Assembly: GCF_001570365.1 (NCBI RefSeq)
Contig: NZ_BBYK01000043.1
Coordinates: 40,677 to 104,676, forward strand
Reading direction: 5' to 3'
Length of the DNA: 64,000 bases
Source of the DNA: Microtetraspora fusca
GTDB lineage: Bacteria > Actinomycetota > Actinomycetes > Streptosporangiales > Streptosporangiaceae
Below the pieces are notes generated by a model. It made no database searches, had not been told where the DNA came from, and worked only from the letters and a program-made list of their open reading frames with translations. Numbering within the stretch: the first letter of the stretch is position 1; every line of letters starts with the position of its first letter. Shown here in pieces: positions 2,259 to 17,423 of the stretch. A program made the translations under genes and the position numbers.

Positions 2259-3545
2259 GTGCCTCAGCAGACCTCACGAGAGAGACGACCCGCGCCGCCG
2301 CGGCCCGCCCACCGGCGGGACACCGGTCGCGACCCCGGCCCGGAGGCGTTGCCCGAGACGCTGGACGCCGCGCTCACCGACGAGGCCGTGCTCGCGACGT
2401 ACCGGCGGATGTTCGCCGCGCTGGCGCGCGACAGCGGCGCGGTCGTGGACGACCCCGCCCTGGTCGACATCGCCGAGACGCTGTTCGACGCGTTCGCGGA
2501 GGCCGGGGAGGAGTGGCTCACCCACGAGCAGATGCGGCACGCCTGCCGGGCCCACCCCACGGATCGGTTCGAGAGCCGGCTGCGCGTGCTCAGGGGGCTC
2601 GGCGCGATCCGCGAGGTCTTCCCCAAGCCCAACCAGCTCCGTTACCGGGCGTCGTTCACCAGCGTGGTCGGGCTGATGTTCATCCGGCGCATGATGGACG
2701 ACGGCGGCCAGTCCGAGATGCACCGGCTGCTCGCGCTCGAGGACCTCAACGCCGCCGACCCGCGCACGACCATGGAGGAGGCCCGCCAGTCGGCGGGCAA
2801 CCTGGCCCGCGCCTTCCGGCTGTGGGCCCTGGAGCTCATCACCCTGACGAACGGCACGATCGAGGAGCTGCGCGAGCAGGCGCCCAAGCTCTGGGGCACC
2901 GAGGAGATCGCGCGGCGGGCGCAGAGCCTGCACGGGACGATCCTGCGCAGGTGGCCGGACCTCGACCGCACCTGCACCGAGCTGCGCGCCGCGATCTACG
3001 CGTACAGCGACGCCTCGCGCCGCGCGGCCGGTCGCCTCGCCGACTCCGCGGGGACGACCCGCAACCTGACGCTGCTGCCCGCCGAGACCTGGCGCACCTT
3101 CGCCCAGACCGCCTCGAAGGAACGGCTGGCCGCCGTGCTCGACGGTTTCGTGTTCGACTCGCCCGCCCCCTGGCACGATCCGGCCGCCATCGCCACGGCC
3201 GTGGACGAGGCGCCGCGCCCGGCGCCGGTCCGGCCCGCTCCCCCGCGCTCGCCGCTCCCGGACGCCGGGCCGGTCGAGTCCGCCGACGGCGGCGTGGCCG
3301 GGCTCGACCGGCTGGCCGCCGTGGCCGAGTCCACGCTCGGCGGCCGGGCCTCGGTTCCGCTGGACGAGGTGCTGACCGGCGACTGGGCCGCCATGCGGCG
3401 GGTGCTCGCCGATCTCGCGTCGGCGGACCTGCGCCCCGAGCTGCCCTACCGGCTGCGCTGGTCCGACGCCGTCGCCGCCGACCCCGGCGGGCAGCCGAGC
3501 TGGCGGTCCGACGGCACGCTGGAACGGGTGCCGACCGATGACTGA
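2259..3545 (+). CDS. Kleisin-like subunit of a MukF/MksF/JetA-type condensin complex
   Basis: A 428-aa protein of no named family that I recognise by sequence. It begins with a basic, Pro-rich tail, then a helical/winged-helix-like region (about residues 40-130, ending in an RVLRGLGAIREVF-type recognition helix and wing). A long helical section follows (about 160-310) containing EARQSAGNLARAF, then a Pro-rich linker and a C-terminal domain. This is the plan of MukF/MksF/JetA kleisins. The role is inferred mainly from gene order: it is first in an operon with a two-winged-helix protein and an SMC-like ATPase. The start is GTG 2259, possibly leaderless; upstream codons in frame lie in Arg/Pro-rich shadow sequence. 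It overlaps the next gene by 8 bp (ATGACTGA). An alternative is an unrelated DNA-binding partner of the ATPase. Confidence 0.6.
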   Translation: MPQQTSRERRPAPPRPAHRRDTGRDPGPEALPETLDAALTDEAVLATYRRMFAALARDSGAVVDDPALVDIAETLFDAFAEAGEEWLTHEQMRHACRAHPTDRFESRLRVLRGLGAIREVFPKPNQLRYRASFTSVVGLMFIRRMMDDGGQSEMHRLLALEDLNAADPRTTMEEARQSAGNLARAFRLWALELITLTNGTIEELREQAPKLWGTEEIARRAQSLHGTILRRWPDLDRTCTELRAAIYAYSDASRRAAGRLADSAGTTRNLTLLPAETWRTFAQTASKERLAAVLDGFVFDSPAPWHDPAAIATAVDEAPRPAPVRPAPPRSPLPDAGPVESADGGVAGLDRLAAVAESTLGGRASVPLDEVLTGDWAAMRRVLADLASADLRPELPYRLRWSDAVAADPGGQPSWRSDGTLERVPTDD

Positions 3546-5013
3546 GACCCCCACCACGGACACCGCCAAGAACACGGACGCCGCCGAGACCTCCACCGTG
3601 CGCCTTATCACCACGCCCGCCGATCCCGGCGAGGGCGCCGACCCGGCGCTCGCGGCCGCGCCGGCTCACGCGCGGGCCCGCGCGTACGGGCCGCTCGCGC
3701 TGGGGCTCACCGAGCCCGCCGCTCCCGGCTTCGTCCGGCTCTCCCTCGGCGACGCCGTGACCAGCGCACCGACGACCGCCGGGGACGCGGCCCCGGCCAC
3801 GGGCGGCCCGGCGACGTCGCCCGTGATCGCGCTGCCCGCCTGGCCGGACGGCGCCACCCCGTCGATCCTCGACGAGTACGGCACCGCGCCCGTGCCGGTG
3901 GAACGCTCCGGCGAGACCCGGCGGGTGCTCGCCGCGTGCCTGCGCGCGTGCTGGAGCGACCTGTCCGCGGAGCCGTGGCCGGGCGTGCCCGCCTCCGTCG
4001 CGGACGTGCTGGCCTGCTACCGCGCCCTCATCGGGCGCGGCGACGACATGACGCGCAGCCGGGCCGTCGGCGCGCTGCGCCGCCTGGCCGACACCGGGTG
4101 GATCATCAGGTCGGGCGACGTCGTACGGCTCGGCCCGCGGTGCGCGACTTGGCCGCCGGAGTCGCACTCCGTACTGCGCGAGCTGGTCCGCCGGCTGCCC
4201 GGGCCGCAGGCGGCGGCGGGCCCGGTGACGCTTCCCCTGGACGCGTCCGCCCCGCTCGACCAGCCCACTCCCTCCGAGACGCCCGCCGCTTCCTCCGATG
4301 CGGCGCACTCGGGCCACGGTGAACCGGCGGCCGCGCCGGCCGACGTGCGGCCGGGGGGCGCCGGGCGGGACGAGACCGCCTCGGATCTCGACAAGCTGCT
4401 CTCCGCCTACGACGAGCGCCGCCGGGCCGAGCTGGTGGCGGCGTTCATGGCGGTCGAGCACGCCGCCGAGCCGGTCCACGAGGCGCGGTTCGCCGCCCTG
4501 CGCGATCCCGCGCTGCGCCGTACGCTCGCGGAGATGCTGGCGCGGCGCGGCCGCACCCTGATCCAGCGGCGCGACACGTGGACCTCCGGATACGACGACG
4601 ACGTGGCCGCCCGTGTCGCCGGCGCGCCGGGCGCCGGCACCCGGCCCGGGCTGTCGGAGGGCGAGCGGGCGGTCCTCACCCTGGTGCTGGTCCACTCGGT
4701 GGCCATCCCCCGCGCCGACGGCCTGCTGTCGGAGGACACCTGGCTCTCGCCGTACCCGGTGGCGGTCGAGGAGCTGCGCCGGCGCACCCTGCTGCCGATC
4801 GGCGAGCTGGAGTCGGCGCTGCGGACGCTGCGCCAGGCCGGCCTGCTGACCCAGGTCAAGGCCGTCTCGGAGGAGGCGCCCGGCGGGTACGTCCCCGGCC
4901 CGCAGTTCCACCGGCTCACCGCGGCGGCCCGCCGTCGCCTCCAGGAGGAGCTGATCCTGGCCGCCGGACCGCAGACGCCGCTCGCCACCGCGATCAGGGC
5001 GCGGCGGGCGTGA
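3538..5013 (+). CDS. KITE-like (MukE/MksE/JetB-type) winged-helix subunit
   Basis: A 491-aa protein with a low-complexity Ala/Thr/Pro-rich N-terminus (about 1-115). A winged-helix-like domain follows (about 130-210: SRAVGALRRLADTGWI, then SGDVVRL). After a Pro/Ala linker there is a second helical and winged-helix section (about 280-480: VEELRRRTLLPIGELESALRTL, then RQAGLLTQ). Paired winged helices are typical of KITE subunits that bind kleisins in MukBEF, MksBEF and Wadjet complexes. Translation is coupled to the upstream gene by an 8-bp overlap, and the SMC-like gene starts 34 bp downstream. I know no characterised close homologue, so the assignment is by architecture and context. It is longer than typical MksE/JetB because of the disordered regions. 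Confidence 0.6.
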   Translation: MTETPTTDTAKNTDAAETSTVRLITTPADPGEGADPALAAAPAHARARAYGPLALGLTEPAAPGFVRLSLGDAVTSAPTTAGDAAPATGGPATSPVIALPAWPDGATPSILDEYGTAPVPVERSGETRRVLAACLRACWSDLSAEPWPGVPASVADVLACYRALIGRGDDMTRSRAVGALRRLADTGWIIRSGDVVRLGPRCATWPPESHSVLRELVRRLPGPQAAAGPVTLPLDASAPLDQPTPSETPAASSDAAHSGHGEPAAAPADVRPGGAGRDETASDLDKLLSAYDERRRAELVAAFMAVEHAAEPVHEARFAALRDPALRRTLAEMLARRGRTLIQRRDTWTSGYDDDVAARVAGAPGAGTRPGLSEGERAVLTLVLVHSVAIPRADGLLSEDTWLSPYPVAVEELRRRTLLPIGELESALRTLRQAGLLTQVKAVSEEAPGGYVPGPQFHRLTAAARRRLQEELILAAGPQTPLATAIRARRA

Positions 5014-5047
5014 CGGGGAAACACGAGCGAGGAAAGGAAGCAGCGGC

Positions 5048-7996
5048 TTGACGCAGACCGACAACGTCGTCGGAGACCGGGTGCTGGTCGCCGTGCAGGC
5101 GATCAACATCTCCCGGCTGTCGACGCATCCGGTGCCGACCGTGCCGGGGACGCTGATCGTGGTCGCGGGCGCGGGTCCCAAGGACTCCAACGGCGCGGGC
5201 AAGTCGTCGTTCATCGCGGCGATCACCGCGCTGCTCGGCGACGAGCAGTGGCGGTTCGCGTCCGGGGCGAAGGCCGTCTCCGAGCTGCTGTTCAACGCCG
5301 AGCTCGCCGCGCACGGCGACCAGCAGTGGGCCAGCGCCGACCATGGTTACATCATCGGCGTGTTCGACGTGCCGTCGACCGGGCTGCCGATGACGGTGTG
5401 GCTGCGGGTCAACCGCGAGGCGCCGTACCTGGAGATCAGGTGGACCGACGGGGTGCGCCTGGCGGCGGGCGCGTCGGAGGCCGAGCGGGTCACCCGGTCC
5501 GACGAGGTGTGGGCGCAGCTCCCGCGCGGCGCCGGGCGGCGCGACATCGTGGCCCGCGACCTCACCCGGGTCCTGTACGGCGACCGCGTCCGGTGCGTGT
5601 CGTTCCTGTCCACGTCGGTCCGGAGCAAGGTCGCCACGAACCTGCTGTCCCAGCCGCTGAACGAGATCTCCCCCGAGCGCATCTTCGAGGCGATCGCGGC
5701 GCTCACCGGTCTGGACGCCGAGCTGGACCAGGAGCGCGAGGCCAGGCGGGACGAGCACGCCAAGCGGGTCAGGGCGGCCGAGGCGGCCGACCGGCTGCGC
5801 GAGTTCGAGATCGAGTCCGAGAGGCTGATCGCCGCGTTCGACCGGCGCGACCGGGCGCGCGTCGAGCTGGCGAGCGCGCTGCGCTGCTGGCGCGGGCGGC
5901 TCGCCCGGCGGCTCGTGGACGCCGCCACGCGGGACGAGGCCCTGGAAGCCGAGCTGGCCACCTGCCAGGAGGCCGCCGAGTCGGCGTCCGAGGCGATCGC
6001 CGAGCTGCGTGAGGAGATCGCCGCGCTCAAGGACGACTCGCTCGACCGCGCCCTCGCCTCGGCCCGGCGCGAGCTGGCCGGGATCCAGGCGCGGGCGGCC
6101 AAGCTGGAGGCCGACCGGGCGGTGGCCCAGAGCACCGCCGACCGGCTCAGGGCGCAGATGCCCGCGCTTGAGGAGCTGCGACGCCAGGCCGACGGCCGGG
6201 ACGTCGCCGCCGCCGAACGGGAGATGTCCGAGGCGCGCGCCCGGGTGGACGCGGCGCTCAAGGCGCTCGGCGTGGCCGACCGCGAGGTCGAGACCGCCCA
6301 GGCGGCGCTCGACGACGCGGAGAACGGCCCCGCCGCCGCCCAGCTCGCCGCGCTGGCCGCGCGAGGCGTCGCCGCCGCCGGCCTCCTCGACGCGATCGAC
6401 GTGGCCGAGCAGGCGCGGGACGCGTCCGCCGCCGGTCTGGTCGCCGCCGGGTCCTGGCCGCACGAGCACGCGGTGATCGTGGACGGCGCCGACCTGGCCG
6501 CGGCGGCGGAGGCGCTGGCCGATCTGCCGGGTTCGGTGCTGGTCAGCTCCACGGGCGTGACGGTCGTCGGCGCGTTCGAGAGCGCGGTGACCGGACGGGA
6601 GGCCCGGGTCAAGGCCGCCGAGCAGCGGCTGAACCGGGCCCGCGACGCGCAGGACCGGGCCGCCGCGGCGGTGCGGCGGGCGGAGGCCGAGATGGCCGAG
6701 GCGGCCGGCCGCGCCGAGGGCGCCCGGGCCGCGGTGCGTCTCGACGAGATCCGCACCCGGCTGGAGTCCCAGCGCGAGCTGCTGGCCGCACTGCACACCG
6801 CGGCCGACGAGCTGACCCCGGCGCTCGACGCGTCCGAGGAGCGCGTGAGCGCGCTCGACTTCCGGGCGCGCACCCGGGACATGGAGATCGAGCGGCTGGA
6901 GGGCCGCCGGTCGAGCTTCGAGGCCGACCGCGACCGGGCCCGCGAGCAGGCCGCCCGTACGGCCACCGAGCGGCGGGCGCTCGACCTCGACGGGCTCGGC
7001 GAGGAGTGGGGCGGCGCGGTCGAGGAGGCGCGCGCGTGGCTCGCCGATGAGGAGTCGCTGACCGCCGACGAGTGGTGGCGCGGCGCCGAGCGGCACCTCG
7101 ACGCCGCCCTGCGCGGCGGCTTCGGCGACACTGCCGAGACCGGTGACGAGATGCCCGAGGAGCTCGCCTTCCTCGTCAACGAGCGGCGCGGCGGACGGGC
7201 TGCCGAGGAGCTGGCGACGTTCCCTGCGGTGTGCGCGGCGCTCGGCGCCTATCTGCGCGGCCAGGAGGAGTACGAACGGCACCGCCGCCAGCAGATCGAG
7301 ACCCAGCTCTCCTCGCGCCGCCGCGACCTGGAGACCGCGACCCGGGGCGCGGAGGACGCGGCGCAGTCCACGGCCGTGCACCGCGCGGCCCTCACCGAGG
7401 CGATCAGAGCCCGGCTGGCCCGGGTCGCCGAGGAGTTCGAGAAGCTCGACGTGGGCTACGGCGGGTACGGCGCGACGCTGGACTTCCCCGTGCCGGCCGC
7501 CCCCGCCGACCCCGAGCAGCGCTGGTCGTGGCGGGTCGTGCCCAAGTGGCGGCGCGGCGACGGCCAGGGGTTCGTGCCGTACAACCGGCGGGCCAACACG
7601 GCACTGATGGACGAGAAGGCGGTCAAGCTCGTCTGCGCCGCCGCGATCGCCTCATCCGGGGGCGGCCACCTGACGCTCGTGCTCGACGAGCTCGGCCGCA
7701 ACCTCGGCAAGGAGCACCGCCGGGAGGCCGTCGCGCTGTTCCGCCGGATCGGCGAGATGCACGGCATCACGGTCATCGGCGCCCTGCAGGACGACATGGA
7801 GCCCTACGCCATCGACGCCTGCGGGCAGTACGTGAAGCTGCGCCGCTCCTCCGACGCCATGCCGTACAACGAGCCGCCGGTCATCGTGGGGCACGACCGG
7901 CACGCCGAGCGGGTGCGCATGCTCGCGGAGTGGGTGGCCCGCCCGCGAGCCGTCCCGGCGCCGAGCCCCGACGACGCGGCCGCCGCCGCGCCGTGA
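5048..7996 (+). CDS. SMC-like coiled-coil ATPase (MukB/MksB/JetC-type)
   Basis: A 982-aa ATPase with SMC layout. The N-terminal Walker A is DSNGAGKSS (K52). Long Glu/Arg/Ala-rich coiled coils (about 200-420 and 520-770) flank a globular hinge-like segment (about 430-517, with HAVIVDGADLAAAAEAL). The C-terminal head has the Walker B LTLVLDELG (D880, E881). Where SMC proteins carry LSGGE before K, this head reads ALMDE-K (852-857), so the ABC signature seems lost. The start is TTG 5048, preceded by aggaaaggaag. It is the last gene of the three-gene operon. In MukBEF/MksBEF and Wadjet, such ATPases extrude DNA loops with kleisin and KITE partners. No JetD/MksG nuclease gene is adjacent: the next gene is a convergent permease. 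SbcC is encoded separately at 12.4-16.3 kb. Confidence 0.8.
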   Translation: MTQTDNVVGDRVLVAVQAINISRLSTHPVPTVPGTLIVVAGAGPKDSNGAGKSSFIAAITALLGDEQWRFASGAKAVSELLFNAELAAHGDQQWASADHGYIIGVFDVPSTGLPMTVWLRVNREAPYLEIRWTDGVRLAAGASEAERVTRSDEVWAQLPRGAGRRDIVARDLTRVLYGDRVRCVSFLSTSVRSKVATNLLSQPLNEISPERIFEAIAALTGLDAELDQEREARRDEHAKRVRAAEAADRLREFEIESERLIAAFDRRDRARVELASALRCWRGRLARRLVDAATRDEALEAELATCQEAAESASEAIAELREEIAALKDDSLDRALASARRELAGIQARAAKLEADRAVAQSTADRLRAQMPALEELRRQADGRDVAAAEREMSEARARVDAALKALGVADREVETAQAALDDAENGPAAAQLAALAARGVAAAGLLDAIDVAEQARDASAAGLVAAGSWPHEHAVIVDGADLAAAAEALADLPGSVLVSSTGVTVVGAFESAVTGREARVKAAEQRLNRARDAQDRAAAAVRRAEAEMAEAAGRAEGARAAVRLDEIRTRLESQRELLAALHTAADELTPALDASEERVSALDFRARTRDMEIERLEGRRSSFEADRDRAREQAARTATERRALDLDGLGEEWGGAVEEARAWLADEESLTADEWWRGAERHLDAALRGGFGDTAETGDEMPEELAFLVNERRGGRAAEELATFPAVCAALGAYLRGQEEYERHRRQQIETQLSSRRRDLETATRGAEDAAQSTAVHRAALTEAIRARLARVAEEFEKLDVGYGGYGATLDFPVPAAPADPEQRWSWRVVPKWRRGDGQGFVPYNRRANTALMDEKAVKLVCAAAIASSGGGHLTLVLDELGRNLGKEHRREAVALFRRIGEMHGITVIGALQDDMEPYAIDACGQYVKLRRSSDAMPYNEPPVIVGHDRHAERVRMLAEWVARPRAVPAPSPDDAAAAAP

Positions 7997-12378: not shown

Positions 12379-15300
12379 TCAGGCCATGGAGAGTGTGGAG
12401 CCGCCGCGTCCCTTGCGTACCCGGATCTGGGCGGGGATGCGGGTCCGCAGCTCGGCAACGTGACTGACGATGCCGACCGCCCGGCCGCCCTCGCGCAGGC
12501 CGTCCAGGATGTCCAGGACGTCGTCGAGGGTGTCCTCGTCGAGCGTGCCGAACCCCTCGTCCACGAAAAGGGTGCCGATCTCGGGGCCGCCCGCCTCCGC
12601 CGTCACGACGTCGGCCAGGCCGAGGGCCAGCGCCAGCGACGTGATGAAGCTCTCACCGCCGGACAGGGTCACCGGGTCGCGGTCCACACCGGTCCAGCCG
12701 TCGAGCACCCGCAGCCCCAGGCCGCCGCCGGACCGGCCGCGGTCGCCCGCCGCCTGCCTCAGGTTGTGCTGGAGCAGGTACCGCCCGCCGGACATGCGGT
12801 CGAGCCGGTCGTTCGCGGCGGCCACCACCTGGCGGAGCCGCTCCCCCAGCACGTACGCCGACAGCCGGATGTGCAGGGGGTTGTCCGCCGACGTCCCGCC
12901 CGCGAGCTCGGCCAGCTTCCGGGCGCGCCGGTGCCGCTCGGCCGCCGGGCCGTACCGCCGGTGCGCGCCCTCCAGCTCGGCGGCGAGCCCGGTGAGCTGC
13001 GCCAGCCTGCTCCGGGCGTGATCACGGGCCGACGTCCGGTCGGTGGCCTCCTGCTCGGCCCGCCCGTGCTCCGCCTCCAGTGTCACGAGGTCCGGCTCGG
13101 GCGCGGCCGCCGCCGCGACCAGTTCCGGATCGGCGAGCAACGCCTCCACGGCGGCCTGCTCGTCCGCGAAGCGCCGGAGCCGCTCGGCCATCTCCTCGCG
13201 CTCGGCCGCGCCGCGCACCGCCGCCCGGGCGTCGTCGAGGGTGGCGAACCCGGCCTCGGACGCGGCCGACGACGCCTGCGCACGGGCCACCTCCCGCTCC
13301 CGCTCGGCCGTCGCGGACGCGCCGACCGCCTCGGCGGCGTCGTGGAGCAGCGCGGCCTCCGTCGCGAGCCGTTCCAGCCGGGCCTCCAGTGAGGGGTCGC
13401 CGCCGCGCGCCTCGTCGAGCAGGGCGGCCAGCCTCTCCCGCTGCTCGGCGAGCTGGTCGCGCCGGGTCCGGGTCTCCGCGGCCTCCAGATCGAGGGAGCG
13501 GGAACGCTCCCCGGCCTCGGCGAGTTCGGCGGCGAGCCGGCCGGTCTCCTCCTGGAGGGCGGGCTCGGCCGCCGCCGTGTCGCTCGCCTCGCGCAGCGTC
13601 CGCTCCGCCGCCGCGAGGACCGCCGCCACCGCCTCCTGACTGGGCTCGGCATCCCCGTGCGTCATGATCTCGGCGACCTCGGCCCGGGCCTTCTCGTACG
13701 CGACACGCGCCTCCACCGCCCCGGCGACGGCGCGGGCGGCGGCGGCGAGGGACAGCGCCTCCGCCGCGAACCGGTCACGCCTGGCCCGGACGCTGTCGTC
13801 CTCTCCCCTCGCCTCACCGAGGCGGGCCGCGAGGCGGTCCCGCTCGGCCAGCAGCTCCGCCTCGCCGGTACGGTGACCGGCCAGCGCGCGGCCCGCCTCG
13901 TCGACCCGGTCGCGCAGCGCCTCCGACTCCGCGGCGAGCCGCTCGACCTCGGCGGCGGCCTCCGGCTCGACGGCCGCCGCGTCCCGGGCCTCGGCCAGCT
14001 CGGCCTCCGCGGCGGCGAGCCGGGCCAGCGCGTCCTCGACGGACAGCTCCTCCGCCCGCCGGGCGGCCTCGTCAAGCTGGGAGGCCAGCACGGCGACCCG
14101 GCTCTCGGCGTCCTCCCGGCCCTGCCTGGCGGCCTCGAACGCGTCCTCCGCGGCCTGCTCGTCGTCCACGGTCGGCGCGGCGGCCGACGGCGCGGCCGGC
14201 GCGGGATGCTCGGCGGAGCCGCACACCGCGCAGGGCTCTCCGGGCACGAGCGACCGCGCCAGCTCGGCGGCCATGCCGTCGATGCGGGCGAGCCGCACAC
14301 CCTGGAGCAGGTCGCGCGCCTCCTGCGCCCGGTCCACCGCCGCCCGGCGCTCCCGCTCGGCCTCGTCCAGCTCGGCGGCCAGCGCGTCTCGTCGTACGGC
14401 GGCGGCGTGCAGGTCGCGGGCCGCCGCGGCGGCGGCCTCACGCACCGGGATCCGCGCGGCGGCGGCCCGCGCCACGGCCAGCCGCTCGTCCGCCTCGGCG
14501 AGCGCGGCCGGGAGCGAGGCGAGATCCGCGAGCGCGGCGGCCTCCCGTTCGGCGGCCTCCTCGATCTCCGCGCGCACCTCGGCCAGCCGGGCCACGACCC
14601 CGGCCAGCCGCTCCTCCTCGTCCGCCAGCAGCTCCAGCCTGGCCTGCTCGTCCCGCCGCTCGCGCTCCAGCCGGGCCAGCTCGTCGTGCCAGGCCCGCTC
14701 CGCCTCCAGCGGCACGGCTTCGTCCGGCGCCGCGTCCCCGTGCCACGCCTCGCCGGACGGCATGCCACCCGGCGTCAGCCGTACCGGCCGGAGGTCGGGG
14801 GCGTCGGGCAGCGCCTCGAGGGCAGCGGCCCGCGCCCGCCTGGCGTCGGCCAGCTCGGCGGCGAGCGTGTCCCGGCGGCGCACCGCGGCCAGATCACGCT
14901 CGGCCGCGTCCCGGGCGCCCCGCAGACCGGGGAGGCGCGCGACGGCCAGCCGTGCCGCCTCCAGCCGCTCCTCGGCCGAGGCCAGCTCCCCGGGCAGTAC
15001 GGCGAGGCGCTCACGAAGCCCGTCCCGCAGGACCGCCAGCTCGGCCAGCCGCCCGTCCGCCTGGGCGAGGTCGGCGCGAACCTGTGCCAGCCGGGCCTCC
15101 TCAGGGACGAGCTGCTCCAGGCGGGCCACCTCGTCGCGGCGCTCGCGCTCCCGCTCACGCAGCCCGGCCACGCCCGGCCACGCGTCCTCGGCGAGGGAGC
15201 CGGGCGTCGTGCCGAAGCCGGATTCCGTCATGGTGCCGGACGCGGGGTCGGAGAAGGTGAGGGCCAGCGCCCGGGCCACGGCGTCCGCCGCGAGCCGCCG

Positions 15301-16311
15301 CGCCTTGGCGGCGGTCTCCACCCGCTGGTCCGCCTGGCGGATGAGCGGCAGCACCCGCTCGGCCCGCGCCGCCTCGTCGAGCACGCTCTCCAGGTCGGAG
15401 CGCTCGTCCGCGGCCAGCGCCAGCTCCTCGCGCCGTACCAGGGCGGAGGCGTGGCGCCTGCGGCGGTCGGCCAGCGCCCGGCCCTCGTCCATCCGGCCGC
15501 GGGCGGAGGCCAGCACGGCGGCGGCGAGCGCCTGCTCCTCCCCGCTCCGCTCGACGACGCCGGCGGCGGCCGCCAGCAGGGCGCCGGACCAGCCGAGCGG
15601 GTCCTCCCCCGCGTCGGGAGCCTCGTCCGGCAGGACGGGACCGGCGGCGCCGCGCATCCGGTTCACGACGGAGTCGACCTCCTGGCGGAGCTCCTGCTGC
15701 TCCCGCCCGGTACGCGTGCGATGCTCGGCGAGCCACTTTTCGACCTCGGTGTAGACCTTGACCGAGAAGAGCCGTTCGAGGAGTTTGCGCCGGTCGTCGC
15801 CGTCCGCGCGCAGGAAGCGGGCGAAATCCCCCTGGGGGAGCATCGCGACCTGCCAGAACTGGTCGGCGTTCATCCCGAGGAGCTCGCCGACCAGGTGACC
15901 GGCCTCGTCGCTGCGGGTGCTGCGCGGCGTCCAGACGCCGGATGCCGCGTCCAGCTCCTCGACCAGGGCCTTGGCCTTCTCCTCCACCAGGCCGGAGCCG
16001 CGGAGCTTGGGCCGCATCCAGGCGGGCGACCGGGTGATCCGGAACCGCCGGTTCCTGATCGTCGCCTCCAGCGTCACCGCCGGGCCCCGCCCGGCCGGCG
16101 CGTGGTCGCAGCGCAGGCTGCGGGCGCTGTCACGTTGCCCGGGCACCCGGCCGTACAGCGCGTAGCAGACGGCGTCGAGCAGCGTGGTCTTGCCCGCGCC
16201 GGTCGGACCGTGGATGAGGAACAGCCCGGCCTCGCCGAGCGCGTCGAAGTCGACCTCCTCCTCGCCGGGGAAGGAGCCGAAGGCGGTCAACCTCAGCCGG
16301 TGCAGCCTCAC
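12379..16311 (-). CDS. sbcC: Exonuclease SbcC, ATPase subunit
   Basis: A 1310-aa Rad50-like ATPase that pairs with SbcD to process DNA ends and hairpins. The N-terminal Walker A is HGPTGAGKTTLLD (about 34-46). Very long Ala/Glu/Arg-rich coiled coils surround the zinc hook CAVC (in PGEPCAVCGSAEHP). The C-terminal head has the ABC signature LSGGES and Walker B TLFVDEGFGTLDE. These intact motifs contrast with the SMC-like protein at 5.0-8.0 kb. The start is GTG 16311, overlapping the sbcD stop by 4 bp (GTGA), so the pair is translationally coupled. It is convergent with the PucR-type gene, with only 20 bp between stop codons. Confidence 0.95.
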   Translation of the reverse strand: MRLHRLRLTAFGSFPGEEEVDFDALGEAGLFLIHGPTGAGKTTLLDAVCYALYGRVPGQRDSARSLRCDHAPAGRGPAVTLEATIRNRRFRITRSPAWMRPKLRGSGLVEEKAKALVEELDAASGVWTPRSTRSDEAGHLVGELLGMNADQFWQVAMLPQGDFARFLRADGDDRRKLLERLFSVKVYTEVEKWLAEHRTRTGREQQELRQEVDSVVNRMRGAAGPVLPDEAPDAGEDPLGWSGALLAAAAGVVERSGEEQALAAAVLASARGRMDEGRALADRRRRHASALVRREELALAADERSDLESVLDEAARAERVLPLIRQADQRVETAAKARRLAADAVARALALTFSDPASGTMTESGFGTTPGSLAEDAWPGVAGLRERERERRDEVARLEQLVPEEARLAQVRADLAQADGRLAELAVLRDGLRERLAVLPGELASAEERLEAARLAVARLPGLRGARDAAERDLAAVRRRDTLAAELADARRARAAALEALPDAPDLRPVRLTPGGMPSGEAWHGDAAPDEAVPLEAERAWHDELARLERERRDEQARLELLADEEERLAGVVARLAEVRAEIEEAAEREAAALADLASLPAALAEADERLAVARAAAARIPVREAAAAAARDLHAAAVRRDALAAELDEAERERRAAVDRAQEARDLLQGVRLARIDGMAAELARSLVPGEPCAVCGSAEHPAPAAPSAAAPTVDDEQAAEDAFEAARQGREDAESRVAVLASQLDEAARRAEELSVEDALARLAAAEAELAEARDAAAVEPEAAAEVERLAAESEALRDRVDEAGRALAGHRTGEAELLAERDRLAARLGEARGEDDSVRARRDRFAAEALSLAAAARAVAGAVEARVAYEKARAEVAEIMTHGDAEPSQEAVAAVLAAAERTLREASDTAAAEPALQEETGRLAAELAEAGERSRSLDLEAAETRTRRDQLAEQRERLAALLDEARGGDPSLEARLERLATEAALLHDAAEAVGASATAEREREVARAQASSAASEAGFATLDDARAAVRGAAEREEMAERLRRFADEQAAVEALLADPELVAAAAAPEPDLVTLEAEHGRAEQEATDRTSARDHARSRLAQLTGLAAELEGAHRRYGPAAERHRRARKLAELAGGTSADNPLHIRLSAYVLGERLRQVVAAANDRLDRMSGGRYLLQHNLRQAAGDRGRSGGGLGLRVLDGWTGVDRDPVTLSGGESFITSLALALGLADVVTAEAGGPEIGTLFVDEGFGTLDEDTLDDVLDILDGLREGGRAVGIVSHVAELRTRIPAQIRVRKGRGGSTLSMA

Positions 16312-17423
16312 GAGACCTCCCTGATCCGGCAGTCCTCCACGGCCCGCTCCAGCAGCCGTCTCTCCTCGTCGTCGGCGGGCTCGCCGCGCACGTCGCGGAC
16401 GAAGTCGAGCGCCACCTCGATCTCGGCGCGTCCGGCGATCTGACGCGGGGCGGCCGCCGCCCCGGCCGTGCCGTCCGGCTCGAAGGCCAGCGCGAGCGTG
16501 TGGGGGAAGCGCGCGCGCAGCCGCTCCATCGCCTCCTTGGGCCGCACCGGATCGGTCAGCGTGATCTGCAGCCAGTGGTCCACGCGGTCGGCGTACCGAT
16601 CTGCGGTGAGCAGGTCGTCGATGCGGCCGCGCAGGCGGGCGAGCCGCCGCGGCACCGGCGCCTGCACGAACTCGGCGCGCACCCCTCCCGGCTCCAGATC
16701 GACCAGCCAGCACCCCTTGACGTGATCGGCCTCGGAGAACGAGTACGCCAGCGGAGACCCGGAGTATCGGACGGTCTCGCTCATGGTCTGCCGCCCGTGC
16801 AGGTGGCCGAGCGCGACGTAGTCCACGCCGTCGAAGGCGCTGAGCGGGACGTGCGCGACGCCGCCCACGGTGATGTCGCGTTCGCTGTCGCTGGCCTGCC
16901 CGCCGGTGACGAAGGCGTGCGCCAGCACGACGGAGTGCCCGCCCCGCGTGGCCGCGTCGGCCCTGATCGCGGTCATCGCGTGGCCCATCGCCGCGCCGTG
17001 GCTGCGCTCCGGCAGCTCCCACGGCCCCCTGACCAGCTCAGGCTCAAGGTACGGAACGCCGTAGAACGCGGTGTCGCCTACCAGCACCGGCTCCCAGGCG
17101 CGGGCCGGGTCCGTACGCAGGTGCACCCGCTCCATCAGGTCGGCGCCGAACCCGAGGCGTACGGCCGAGTCGTGGTTGCCGCTGATCACCACGGTGTGCG
17201 CGCCCAGCGCGGCGAGCCGGCGCAGCGCGTCGTCGAAGAGCGCGACGGCGTCCACCGGCGGCAGGGCGCGGTCGTAGACGTCGCCCGAGATGACCACGAC
17301 GTCCACGTTCTCGGCGCGCACCGTCTCCACGAGGTGGTCGACGAACGCCCCTTGAGCTGCCAAAAGGCTCTCGCGATGGAAGGAGCGGCCCAAGTGCCAG
17401 TCGGAGGTGTGCAGGACCCGCAT
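16308..17423 (-). CDS. sbcD: Exonuclease SbcD, nuclease subunit
   Basis: A 371-aa Mre11-like metallophosphoesterase. The motifs are in order: HTSDWHLG (5-12), SGDVYD, SGNHDS, then the later His motifs LAHAFV and ALGHLHGRQ. These coordinate two Mn2+ ions for exo- and endonuclease activity. The C-terminal capping domain (about 280-371) is present and the length is normal. ATG at 17423 begins MRVLHTSDWHLGRSF without a clear Shine-Dalgarno. It is the first gene of sbcDC, coupled to sbcC by GTGA. Its role is housekeeping DNA repair, although such operons are sometimes confused with defence loci. Confidence 0.95.
   Translation of the reverse strand: MRVLHTSDWHLGRSFHRESLLAAQGAFVDHLVETVRAENVDVVVISGDVYDRALPPVDAVALFDDALRRLAALGAHTVVISGNHDSAVRLGFGADLMERVHLRTDPARAWEPVLVGDTAFYGVPYLEPELVRGPWELPERSHGAAMGHAMTAIRADAATRGGHSVVLAHAFVTGGQASDSERDITVGGVAHVPLSAFDGVDYVALGHLHGRQTMSETVRYSGSPLAYSFSEADHVKGCWLVDLEPGGVRAEFVQAPVPRRLARLRGRIDDLLTADRYADRVDHWLQITLTDPVRPKEAMERLRARFPHTLALAFEPDGTAGAAAAPRQIAGRAEIEVALDFVRDVRGEPADDEERRLLERAVEDCRIREVS

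What the first reader, a model, noticed from the sequence alone, without database searches (positions are those of the whole stretch)
2259..7996. Three-gene condensin-like operon with MukFEB/JetABC order but no JetD/MksG nuclease
Seen: a kleisin-like gene, a two-winged-helix gene and a 982-aa SMC-like ATPase overlap or lie within 34 bp of each other. Established: MukBEF and MksBEF handle chromosomes; Wadjet (JetABCD) and MksBEFG restrict plasmids and need a TOPRIM-type nuclease (JetD/MksG). Inference: the nuclease is absent here, the next gene being a convergent permease and the upstream gene a membrane peptidase. So this is either a chromosome-organising Mks complex, a defence system whose nuclease is encoded elsewhere, or a new variant. 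Extended Ala/Pro linkers in the accessory subunits and the unusual ATPase head make it unlike the textbook types.
Basis: partly seen in the sequence, partly recalled or inferred. Interest (0 to 1): 0.82.

Follow-up and report, generated by a model that had tools for sequence, protein, structure and literature searches.

The report
Nuclease-less Wadjet-like SMC operon
Three neighbouring genes of a soil actinobacterium appear to encode a ring-shaped DNA-handling machine related to the plasmid-cutting Wadjet defence but without its cutting enzyme; it is kept in nearly all genomes examined of one related genus, which suggests that it serves the cell's own chromosome.

Summary
Window 2259-7996 carries a kleisin-like gene, a winged-helix gene and a 982-aa SMC-like ATPase, overlapping by 8 bp or 34 bp apart, with no nuclease gene beside them. 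None has a Pfam or NCBIfam match above cut-off, or a meaningful PADLOC or PDB sequence match. Comparison adds four points. (1) The middle gene is two genes in many relatives, so the complex has two KITE-like modules. (2) A JetD-like TOPRIM gene adjoins divergent relatives (6 intact loci, 2 remnants) but was seen at 0 of 80 named close relatives within held flanks; the finding's own refuting condition is thus partly met, and it points to Wadjet kinship. (3) The nuclease-free form is chromosomal where seen, under purifying selection, and present in 53 of 54 genomes of genus g4. (4) All 115 aligned SMC rows share a stretched P-loop and lack the SGG signature. The host also has ScpB and a separate complete type II Wadjet. 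Best reading: a nuclease-free, Mks-like SMC complex acting mainly on the chromosome (0.55). Function is untested; nuclease loss versus gain is unrooted. New variant of a known kind.

The parts
2259..3545 (+). kleisin-like subunit (428 aa from GTG 2259; 398 aa if the start is TTG 2349)
   Evidence: In the AlphaFold model the C-terminal domain (residues about 347-427; block means 60-91 from residue 351) matches kleisin C-terminal domains best; the rest of the model is poor (mean pLDDT 49.2).
3538..5013 (+). fused double winged-helix (KITE-like) subunit, 491 aa
   Evidence: Two separate genes in many relatives; model pLDDT 77.7, pTM 0.67; Foldseek ranks 1-6 are ScpB.
3538..4203 (+). N-terminal module K1 (residues 1-222), one predicted winged helix at about residues 124-204
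   Evidence: Homologous to a separate gene of about 180 aa in Actinomadura, family f19 and others; boundary approximate.
4204..4362 (+). fusion linker, low-confidence stretch (residues 223-275)
   Evidence: pLDDT under 50 at residues 229-262; boundaries approximate.
4363..5010 (+). C-terminal module K2 (residues 276-491), two predicted winged helices
   Evidence: Homologous to a separate gene of about 215 aa in relatives; residues 370-467 align with ScpB 2z99 at Z 8.8 over 73 residues, tied with many other winged helices.
5048..7996 (+). SMC-like ATPase, 982 aa, TTG start
5168..5209 (+). extended P-loop GAGPKDSNGAGKSS (residues 41-54)
   Evidence: G41, G43, P44, D46, S47, N48, G51 and K52 identical in 115 of 115 rows.
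7595..7636 (+). site of the ABC signature: NTALMDEKAVKLVC in place of the SGG[EQ] type
   Evidence: No SGG at this place in 115 of 115 rows; SGGE or SGGQ present in the four canonical JetC1 and JetC2 proteins compared.
7676..7708 (+). Walker B and D-loop LVLDELGRNLG (residues 877-887)
   Evidence: D880 and E881 identical in 115 of 115 rows.

Best explanation
The operon makes an SMC-kleisin-KITE complex of the Wadjet/Mks kind without a nuclease. Two SMC arms, closed at the ATPase heads by the kleisin and its two winged-helix KITE modules (here fused into one chain), bind DNA and translocate or extrude loops using ATP, acting mainly on the cell's own chromosome, as MksBEF does in P. aeruginosa. 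It belongs to a divergent actinobacterial lineage in which some members carry a JetD-like TOPRIM nuclease gene, so it most likely derives from a Wadjet-like defence system that shed its nuclease and settled in the chromosome. Shown here: gene content, two KITE-like modules, conserved ATPase residues, the nuclease's presence beside relatives and absence here, near-universal presence in one genus, purifying selection. Inferred: complex formation, loop extrusion, chromosomal role, direction of evolution.
For: Order kleisin-K1-K2-SMC in 107 of 107 loci in which all four were found, of 115 examined (some places fetched twice). Kleisin C-domain: the five best structural rows are kleisin C-domains of cohesin and SMC-ScpAB entries (Z 5.5-6.3). 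KITE: Foldseek ranks 1-6 are ScpB (prob 0.99-1.00), with chains of JetABC and Smc5/6 entries at ranks 23 and 24. Walker A and B residues identical in 115 of 115 rows. JetD_C or DUF2399 gene beside L013, L015, L016, L017, L020 and L177, with the TOPRIM acidic residues. Nuclease at 0 of 80 named close relatives within the held flanks, some of them short. Present in 53 of 54 genomes of g4, 41 of 41 good ones, and in all 14 sampled genomes of two f19 genera. SMC and kleisin distances correlate, r 0.96 over 68 loci; SMC and sbcC, r 0.73 over 37 loci. sbcC is in the held flank of 35 of 61 named loci. No match in phage records or viral contigs; the one 'plasmid' record is 11.85 Mb, probably a mislabelled chromosome. 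Among nuclease-bearing loci, L017 adjoins DISARM genes and L020 has two cyclase genes nearby. The review PMC10586767 (passages seen) says P. [quoted passage not shown]
Against: No direct evidence of function. In genus g38 only 48 of 65 genomes have a match, one of them a fragment, and in f19 8 of 22 have none, so it is dispensable in places. The SGG signature is missing, so normal ATP-driven head engagement is unproven. Neither profile searches nor hhalign against canonical JetA, JetB or JetC gave a convincing match (best: SMC against JetC2, probability 69.5% over a coil or hinge stretch), so Wadjet kinship rests on the nuclease neighbours and the architecture. The tree is unrooted: loss and gain of the nuclease are not told apart. 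L014, on the nuclease-bearing side, lacks the nuclease too. Stable inheritance is also possible for a defence system, and only some neighbours of nuclease-bearing loci were scanned (not those of L013, L015, L177).
Confidence: 0.55

Rival explanations
1. It is still an immune system: it senses small circular or viral DNA by total extrusion and either silences it without cutting (as Smc5/6 does with viral DNA) or calls a nuclease encoded elsewhere, for example the JetD of the cell's type II Wadjet or another TOPRIM enzyme.
For: Relatives carry a JetD-like gene. The genome has a JetD2 gene. In C. [quoted passage not shown]
Against: 21 of 54 genomes with the nuclease-free form have neither JetD_C nor DUF2399 detected anywhere; that search recovered the six intact linked nucleases and remnant L182, but missed remnant L178. 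The host's JetD2 sits in its own complete operon. The g4 distribution, 53 of 54, is unlike the patchy spread reported for MksG (PMC10123090, passages).
Confidence: 0.27
2. The nuclease-free form is ancestral: a condensin-like complex in which the nuclease was recruited later in the defence-island branches and in L020. Function as in the best explanation, history reversed.
For: The tree has no outgroup; nuclease presence needs only two changes. L020's nuclease could be a separate gain: it lies downstream of SMC, whereas L015-L017 have theirs upstream of the kleisin.
Against: Five of six deep-branching rows carry the nuclease. The nucleases of L020, L177 and remnant L182 are nearest to each other among those compared, as expected if they travelled with the operon.
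Confidence: 0.15
3. A decaying leftover of a defence system without present function.
For: Two related loci, L178 and L182, are broken; in genus g38, 17 of 65 genomes have no match and one more holds a fragment.
Against: dN/dS 0.10-0.44 for the three genes; P-loop and Walker B invariant in 115 of 115 rows; near-universal in g4.
Confidence: 0.03

Closest known systems
Wadjet / JetABCD (types I-III) and MksBEFG
   Same: Gene order kleisin, KITE, SMC; relatives carry a TOPRIM nuclease with JetD_C or DUF2399.
   Different: No nuclease in the window clade; two KITE-like modules instead of one KITE gene; no PADLOC Jet model matches the three proteins beyond 8.5 bits and no Pfam one does; SGG signature absent.
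MksBEF of Pseudomonas aeruginosa
   Same: SMC-kleisin-KITE complex without nuclease; [quoted passage not shown]
   Different: No detectable sequence kinship: Pfam MksE does not match. MksE is a single KITE (recalled).
SMC-ScpAB
   Same: Fold level: kleisin C-domain and ScpB-like winged helices.
   Different: The genome has its own ScpB on another contig; no sequence match.
Smc5/6 (Nse1/Nse3/Nse4)
   Same: Two different KITE subunits per kleisin (recalled); MAGE-NSE1 and Smc5/6 chains appear among Foldseek rows (ranks 21 and 24).
   Different: Eukaryotic; no sequence kinship seen; a resemblance of plan only.
Hinge-less SMC variants of marine Actinobacteria (PMC12153180)
   Same: Divergent actinobacterial SMC-like proteins.
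   Different: Those are annotated as SMC (COG1196) lacking a hinge (passages seen); not compared by sequence here.

Membership tests
Wadjet (JetABCD) | kleisin, KITE and SMC genes in one operon | tested here: met
   fold support (modest).
Wadjet (JetABCD) | JetD TOPRIM nuclease in the operon | tested here: not met
   None found in the window and no JetD_C in the genome. Met in relatives L013, L015-L017, L020, L177.
Wadjet (JetABCD) | match to known JetA, JetB or JetC models | tested here: not met
   PADLOC best: JetC2 8.5 bits over a coiled coil; nothing for JetA or JetB; no Pfam match.
Wadjet (JetABCD) | restricts plasmids | not testable with these tools
   Needs an experiment.
MksBEF condensin | SMC-kleisin-KITE without nuclease | tested here: met
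MksBEF condensin | sequence kinship with MksB, MksE or MksF | tested here: not met
   No match to Pfam MksE, DUF4194 or DUF3375 at E up to 1; those models do match the canonical system in L180. MksB and MksF by name were not searched with models of their own.
MksBEF condensin | acts on chromosome organisation | not testable with these tools
   Inferred from distribution and context only.
SMC-type ATPase | P-loop and Walker B split by a long coiled coil | tested here: met
   Walker A at 41-54 and Walker B at 877-887, catalytic residues invariant in 115 of 115 rows; sub-cut-off coiled-coil matches between.
SMC-type ATPase | ABC signature SGG[EQ] | tested here: not met
   Replaced in 115 of 115 rows; hence called SMC-like.
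SMC-type ATPase | dimerising hinge domain | tested here: inconclusive
   hhalign to JetC2 over residues 384-588 of the profile, probability 69.5%, may be coil or hinge; not modelled.
Kleisin | C-terminal winged helix of kleisin type | tested here: met
   Five best VIA rows are kleisin C-domains; margin over other winged helices under 1 Z, so modest.
Kleisin | N-terminal helical domain that binds the SMC neck | tested here: inconclusive
   Model confidence too low there.
KITE | tandem winged helices | tested here: met
   K2 has two predicted winged helices and ScpB is the best Foldseek match of the whole model. K1 has one clear winged helix, so K1 as a KITE is inferred.

The most novel reading that the evidence does not exclude
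A separate lineage of bacterial SMC complexes, with two distinct KITE subunits and an ATPase head lacking the ABC signature, in which a plasmid-cutting Wadjet-like defence was turned, by loss of its TOPRIM nuclease, into a core chromosome-organising condensin of whole genera of actinobacteria; some of its nuclease-bearing sisters still sit beside defence genes, giving a living series for the proposed origin of Muk/Mks condensins from immunity.
Probability: 0.35. Interest if true: 0.8.

Novelty: new variant of a known kind. Interest (0 to 1): 0.62.

Why it matters
Whether MukBEF and MksBEF condensins descend from Wadjet-like immunity is offered as speculation in a 2023 review (PMC10586767, passages seen). 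Here nuclease-bearing and nuclease-free forms of one lineage exist, in two genomes even together (G079 and G121), so loss of the nuclease and change of role can be tested directly. The double KITE and the missing signature motif also offer a new test bed for what an SMC motor needs. PADLOC (2023) and Pfam do not recognise the three proteins, so both forms are likely overlooked.

Tried and rejected
Nuclease in trans: JetD_C, DUF2399 and a home-made nuclease profile on the own genome gave only the JetD2 of a separate complete Wadjet (L176); itself warns that its empty answer lacks a positive control. Lamassu: LmuB gives 16.6 bits over a coiled-coil stretch only; rejected. SMC-ScpAB duplicate: no ScpB sequence match; the genome's ScpB is on another contig.

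Mobile element: no match in 50,697 phage records and none in viral contigs with the profile's two patterns; one 'plasmid' record of 11.85 Mb is probably a mislabelled chromosome.

Sequence search of the SMC profile against the PDB gave coiled coils and ABC transporters, with one MukB stretch at E 0.019 that lies in coiled coil; the kleisin profile gave nothing at E up to 1, the KITE protein one hit at E 0.3. hhalign of kleisin and KITE profiles against canonical JetA/JetB gave nothing, but the canonical sets held only 2-3 sequences. The JetD1 set was read in wrong frames, so its rows there mean nothing; L177 SMC was in a wrong frame there and dropped, and read in the right frame. A first L017 kleisin row was in the wrong frame and was dropped.

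Structure: the kleisin model is poor (pLDDT 49; alignment of close relatives only). VIA lists for both models are filled by general winged helices; MukF and Wadjet-II JetA rows were low (Z 4.1), which proves nothing either way.

The A2 searches of the class (29 of 394) and phylum (3 of 296) scored only two candidates per genome, so these are lower bounds. Family f17 gave only the G263 remnant (1 of 35).

Not in print: the listings of searches (top rows only) and passages of three papers showed no description of this lineage; the library holds open PMC papers only.

Full report
What is there. Window 2259-7996 (+) holds three closely packed genes: a kleisin-like gene (ends 3545; start 2259 or, by comparison with some relatives, 2349), a 491-aa winged-helix gene (3538-5013) and a 982-aa SMC-like gene (5048-7996). 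The window lies in a 9.0-Mb genome of 108 contigs. Its nearest named relatives are Microtetraspora species (96% SMC identity to M. malaysiensis). Pfam gives nothing for the kleisin, MarR_2 below cut-off for the winged-helix protein and three P-loop families below cut-off for the SMC. PADLOC and NCBIfam give for the SMC only weak matches, mainly to coiled coil and far below NCBIfam's cut-offs. In the PDB, by sequence, the kleisin profile matches nothing at E up to 1, and the other two have only chance-level rows.

Two KITE-like modules. In relatives the 491-aa protein is often two adjacent genes of about 180 and 215 aa. Of 108 loci in which both halves were found, 56 are fused and 52 separate (some places were fetched twice). 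The order kleisin-K1-K2-SMC holds in 107 of 107 loci with all four, of 115 examined. On the SMC tree the fused form marks the Streptosporangiaceae clade except Bailinhaonella, and separately L015-L017, so the state changed at least twice. The AlphaFold model (pLDDT 77.7, pTM 0.67) shows one clear winged helix in the first half and two in the second. Foldseek ranks 1-6 are all ScpB, the KITE of SMC-ScpAB (prob 0.99-1.00, but E 0.0025-0.019, none under 0.001, and low TM-scores); a 195-residue chain of the E. coli JetABC entry (JetB by its length) and a chain of the Smc5/6 core follow at ranks 23 and 24. VIA gives ScpB Z 8.8 over 73 residues, tied with many winged-helix regulators. The kleisin model is poor (pLDDT 49.2), but its C-terminal domain is good enough that the five best VIA rows are all kleisin C-domains from cohesin and SMC-ScpA entries (Z 5.5-6.3), with other winged helices at 5.4 and below; Foldseek alone had no match under E 0.16. 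These are supporting, not decisive, results.

The ATPase. In 115 aligned homologues (some places twice) the P-loop reads GxGPxDSN[GE][AS]GK[ST], which looks longer than the canonical one by a GPxD insert. K52, D880 and E881 are identical in all. The ABC signature is missing: TALMDEK or TAQEKLF-type stretches stand where the canonical JetC1 and JetC2 compared have SGGQ or SGGE.

Nuclease in relatives. Divergent homologues (25-29% identity to the window SMC for L013 and L015-L017; 42% for L020) have an adjacent gene matching Pfam JetD_C or DUF2399 above cut-off (L013, L015, L016, L020; L017; L177) and PADLOC JetD1 at 22-48 bits (L013, L015, L016, L020, L177). In L020 and L177 it follows the SMC gene on the same strand; in L015-L017 it precedes the kleisin; in L013 it is convergent. 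The TOPRIM acidic residues are present. L182 (the same place as L159) and L178 are broken loci in which the end of this nuclease gene lies beside a piece of the SMC gene. By contrast 0 of 80 named close relatives and 0 of 14 f19 loci have one in the held flanks; 61 of the 80 have at least 7 kb downstream of SMC, the others less. L014, L018, L019 and L021 have none either (L021 has almost no downstream flank).

Nuclease in trans. Over 61 genomes the two Pfam families recovered the six intact linked nucleases and remnant L182, and missed remnant L178. The window's genome has no JetD_C and a single DUF2399 gene, the JetD2 of a complete operon on another contig whose four proteins match PADLOC JetA2, JetB2, JetC2 and JetD2, that is type II. 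Counted, 54 of the 61 genomes carry the nuclease-free clade-A form (left out: G034, G051, G093, G115, G263, G640, G650), and 21 of these 54 have neither family detected. In the other 33 none of the hits lies beside the clade-A SMC gene by contig and position (assembly gaps apart). A JetD in trans therefore does not look like a general requirement; other TOPRIM or unrelated nucleases were not tested.

Inheritance. In f19 it is in 14 of 22 genomes: all 14 sampled genomes of two genera and none of 8 in four others. In the family as a whole it is in 62 of 150 genomes, 26 of 68 genera (divergent forms included). SMC and kleisin distances correlate (r 0.96, 68 loci), and SMC distances with sbcC, a nearby gene, at r 0.73 (37 loci). 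sbcC lies in the held flank of 35 of 61 named loci. It was not found in phage records or viral contigs. dN/dS is 0.10-0.44. Context: among nuclease-bearing loci, L017 adjoins DrmA and DrmB and L020 has two cyclase genes nearby, while L016's one scanned neighbour gave nothing, nor did one of nuclease-free L014; neighbours of L013, L015 and L177 were not scanned. Remnant L182 lies beside a JetD2 gene and a long SMC-like gene. The nine neighbours scanned for nuclease-free loci gave a permease matching a PADLOC 'AA transporter' model (63 bits) and weak hits of SbcD, no defence system.

Tree. With 53 rows, L013, L014, L015-L017 and L177 form one side of a long branch (five of six with nuclease), and 47 rows the other (only L020 with nuclease). 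The label needs two changes; the root is unknown and the long branches are flagged as unsafe. Loss is favoured, because L020's nuclease is nearest to those of L177 and the L182 remnant among those compared, but gain is not excluded.

How it most likely works. By analogy with JetABC and MksBEF (PMC10586767, passages seen), the SMC dimer with kleisin and KITEs would load on DNA and extrude loops with ATP. Without JetD there is no cut, so activity on the chromosome is harmless and may be useful. Stable inheritance beside a separate Wadjet and a ScpB-containing condensin fits a second condensin. Against this, C. glutamicum MksB does not affect chromosome organisation (PMC10123090, passages seen), so relatives cannot be presumed to act on the chromosome. 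Every functional step is inferred.

Verdict. The finding is real and richer than first described: a divergent, nuclease-free member of a Wadjet-related lineage with a double KITE. As a kind it is a variant of SMC-kleisin-KITE complexes, not something categorically new. The listings of eight paper searches showed no description of it in the open library; most subscription papers and preprints were not covered.

Noticed in passing
L176:9450-17474 (G000:C39): The window's genome carries a complete type II Wadjet (DUF2397, DUF2398, JetC2, DUF3323-DUF2399) on another contig.
   Followed up: yes
window 12379-17423: sbcC and sbcD lie about 4.4 kb downstream of the operon; sbcC is also in the held flank of 35 of 61 named relatives.
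   Followed up: partly
L182:7815-9158 (same place as L159): Open frame that runs from a piece of the SMC tail into the end of the JetD-like gene, apparently after an internal deletion, beside a JetD2 gene.
   Followed up: partly
L178 (G640:C82): Broken kleisin, KITE, SMC and nuclease pieces within 5.4 kb.
   Followed up: no
L179 (G099:C26): A weak JetD_C match (31 bits) in a locus where the four subunit profiles find nothing, near a long coiled-coil ORF: perhaps another Wadjet-like system.
   Followed up: no
L032, L024 and other loci: The SMC-like head carries a long, variable low-complexity insert near residue 110 in Nonomuraea and some others.
   Followed up: no
L186 / NZ_LT559118.1: A PLSDB 'plasmid' of 11.85 Mb of Nonomuraea gerenzanensis is probably the chromosome, mislabelled.
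   Followed up: no
L014 (G115:C11): A deep-branching locus without the nuclease gene, so absence is not confined to the window clade.
   Followed up: no
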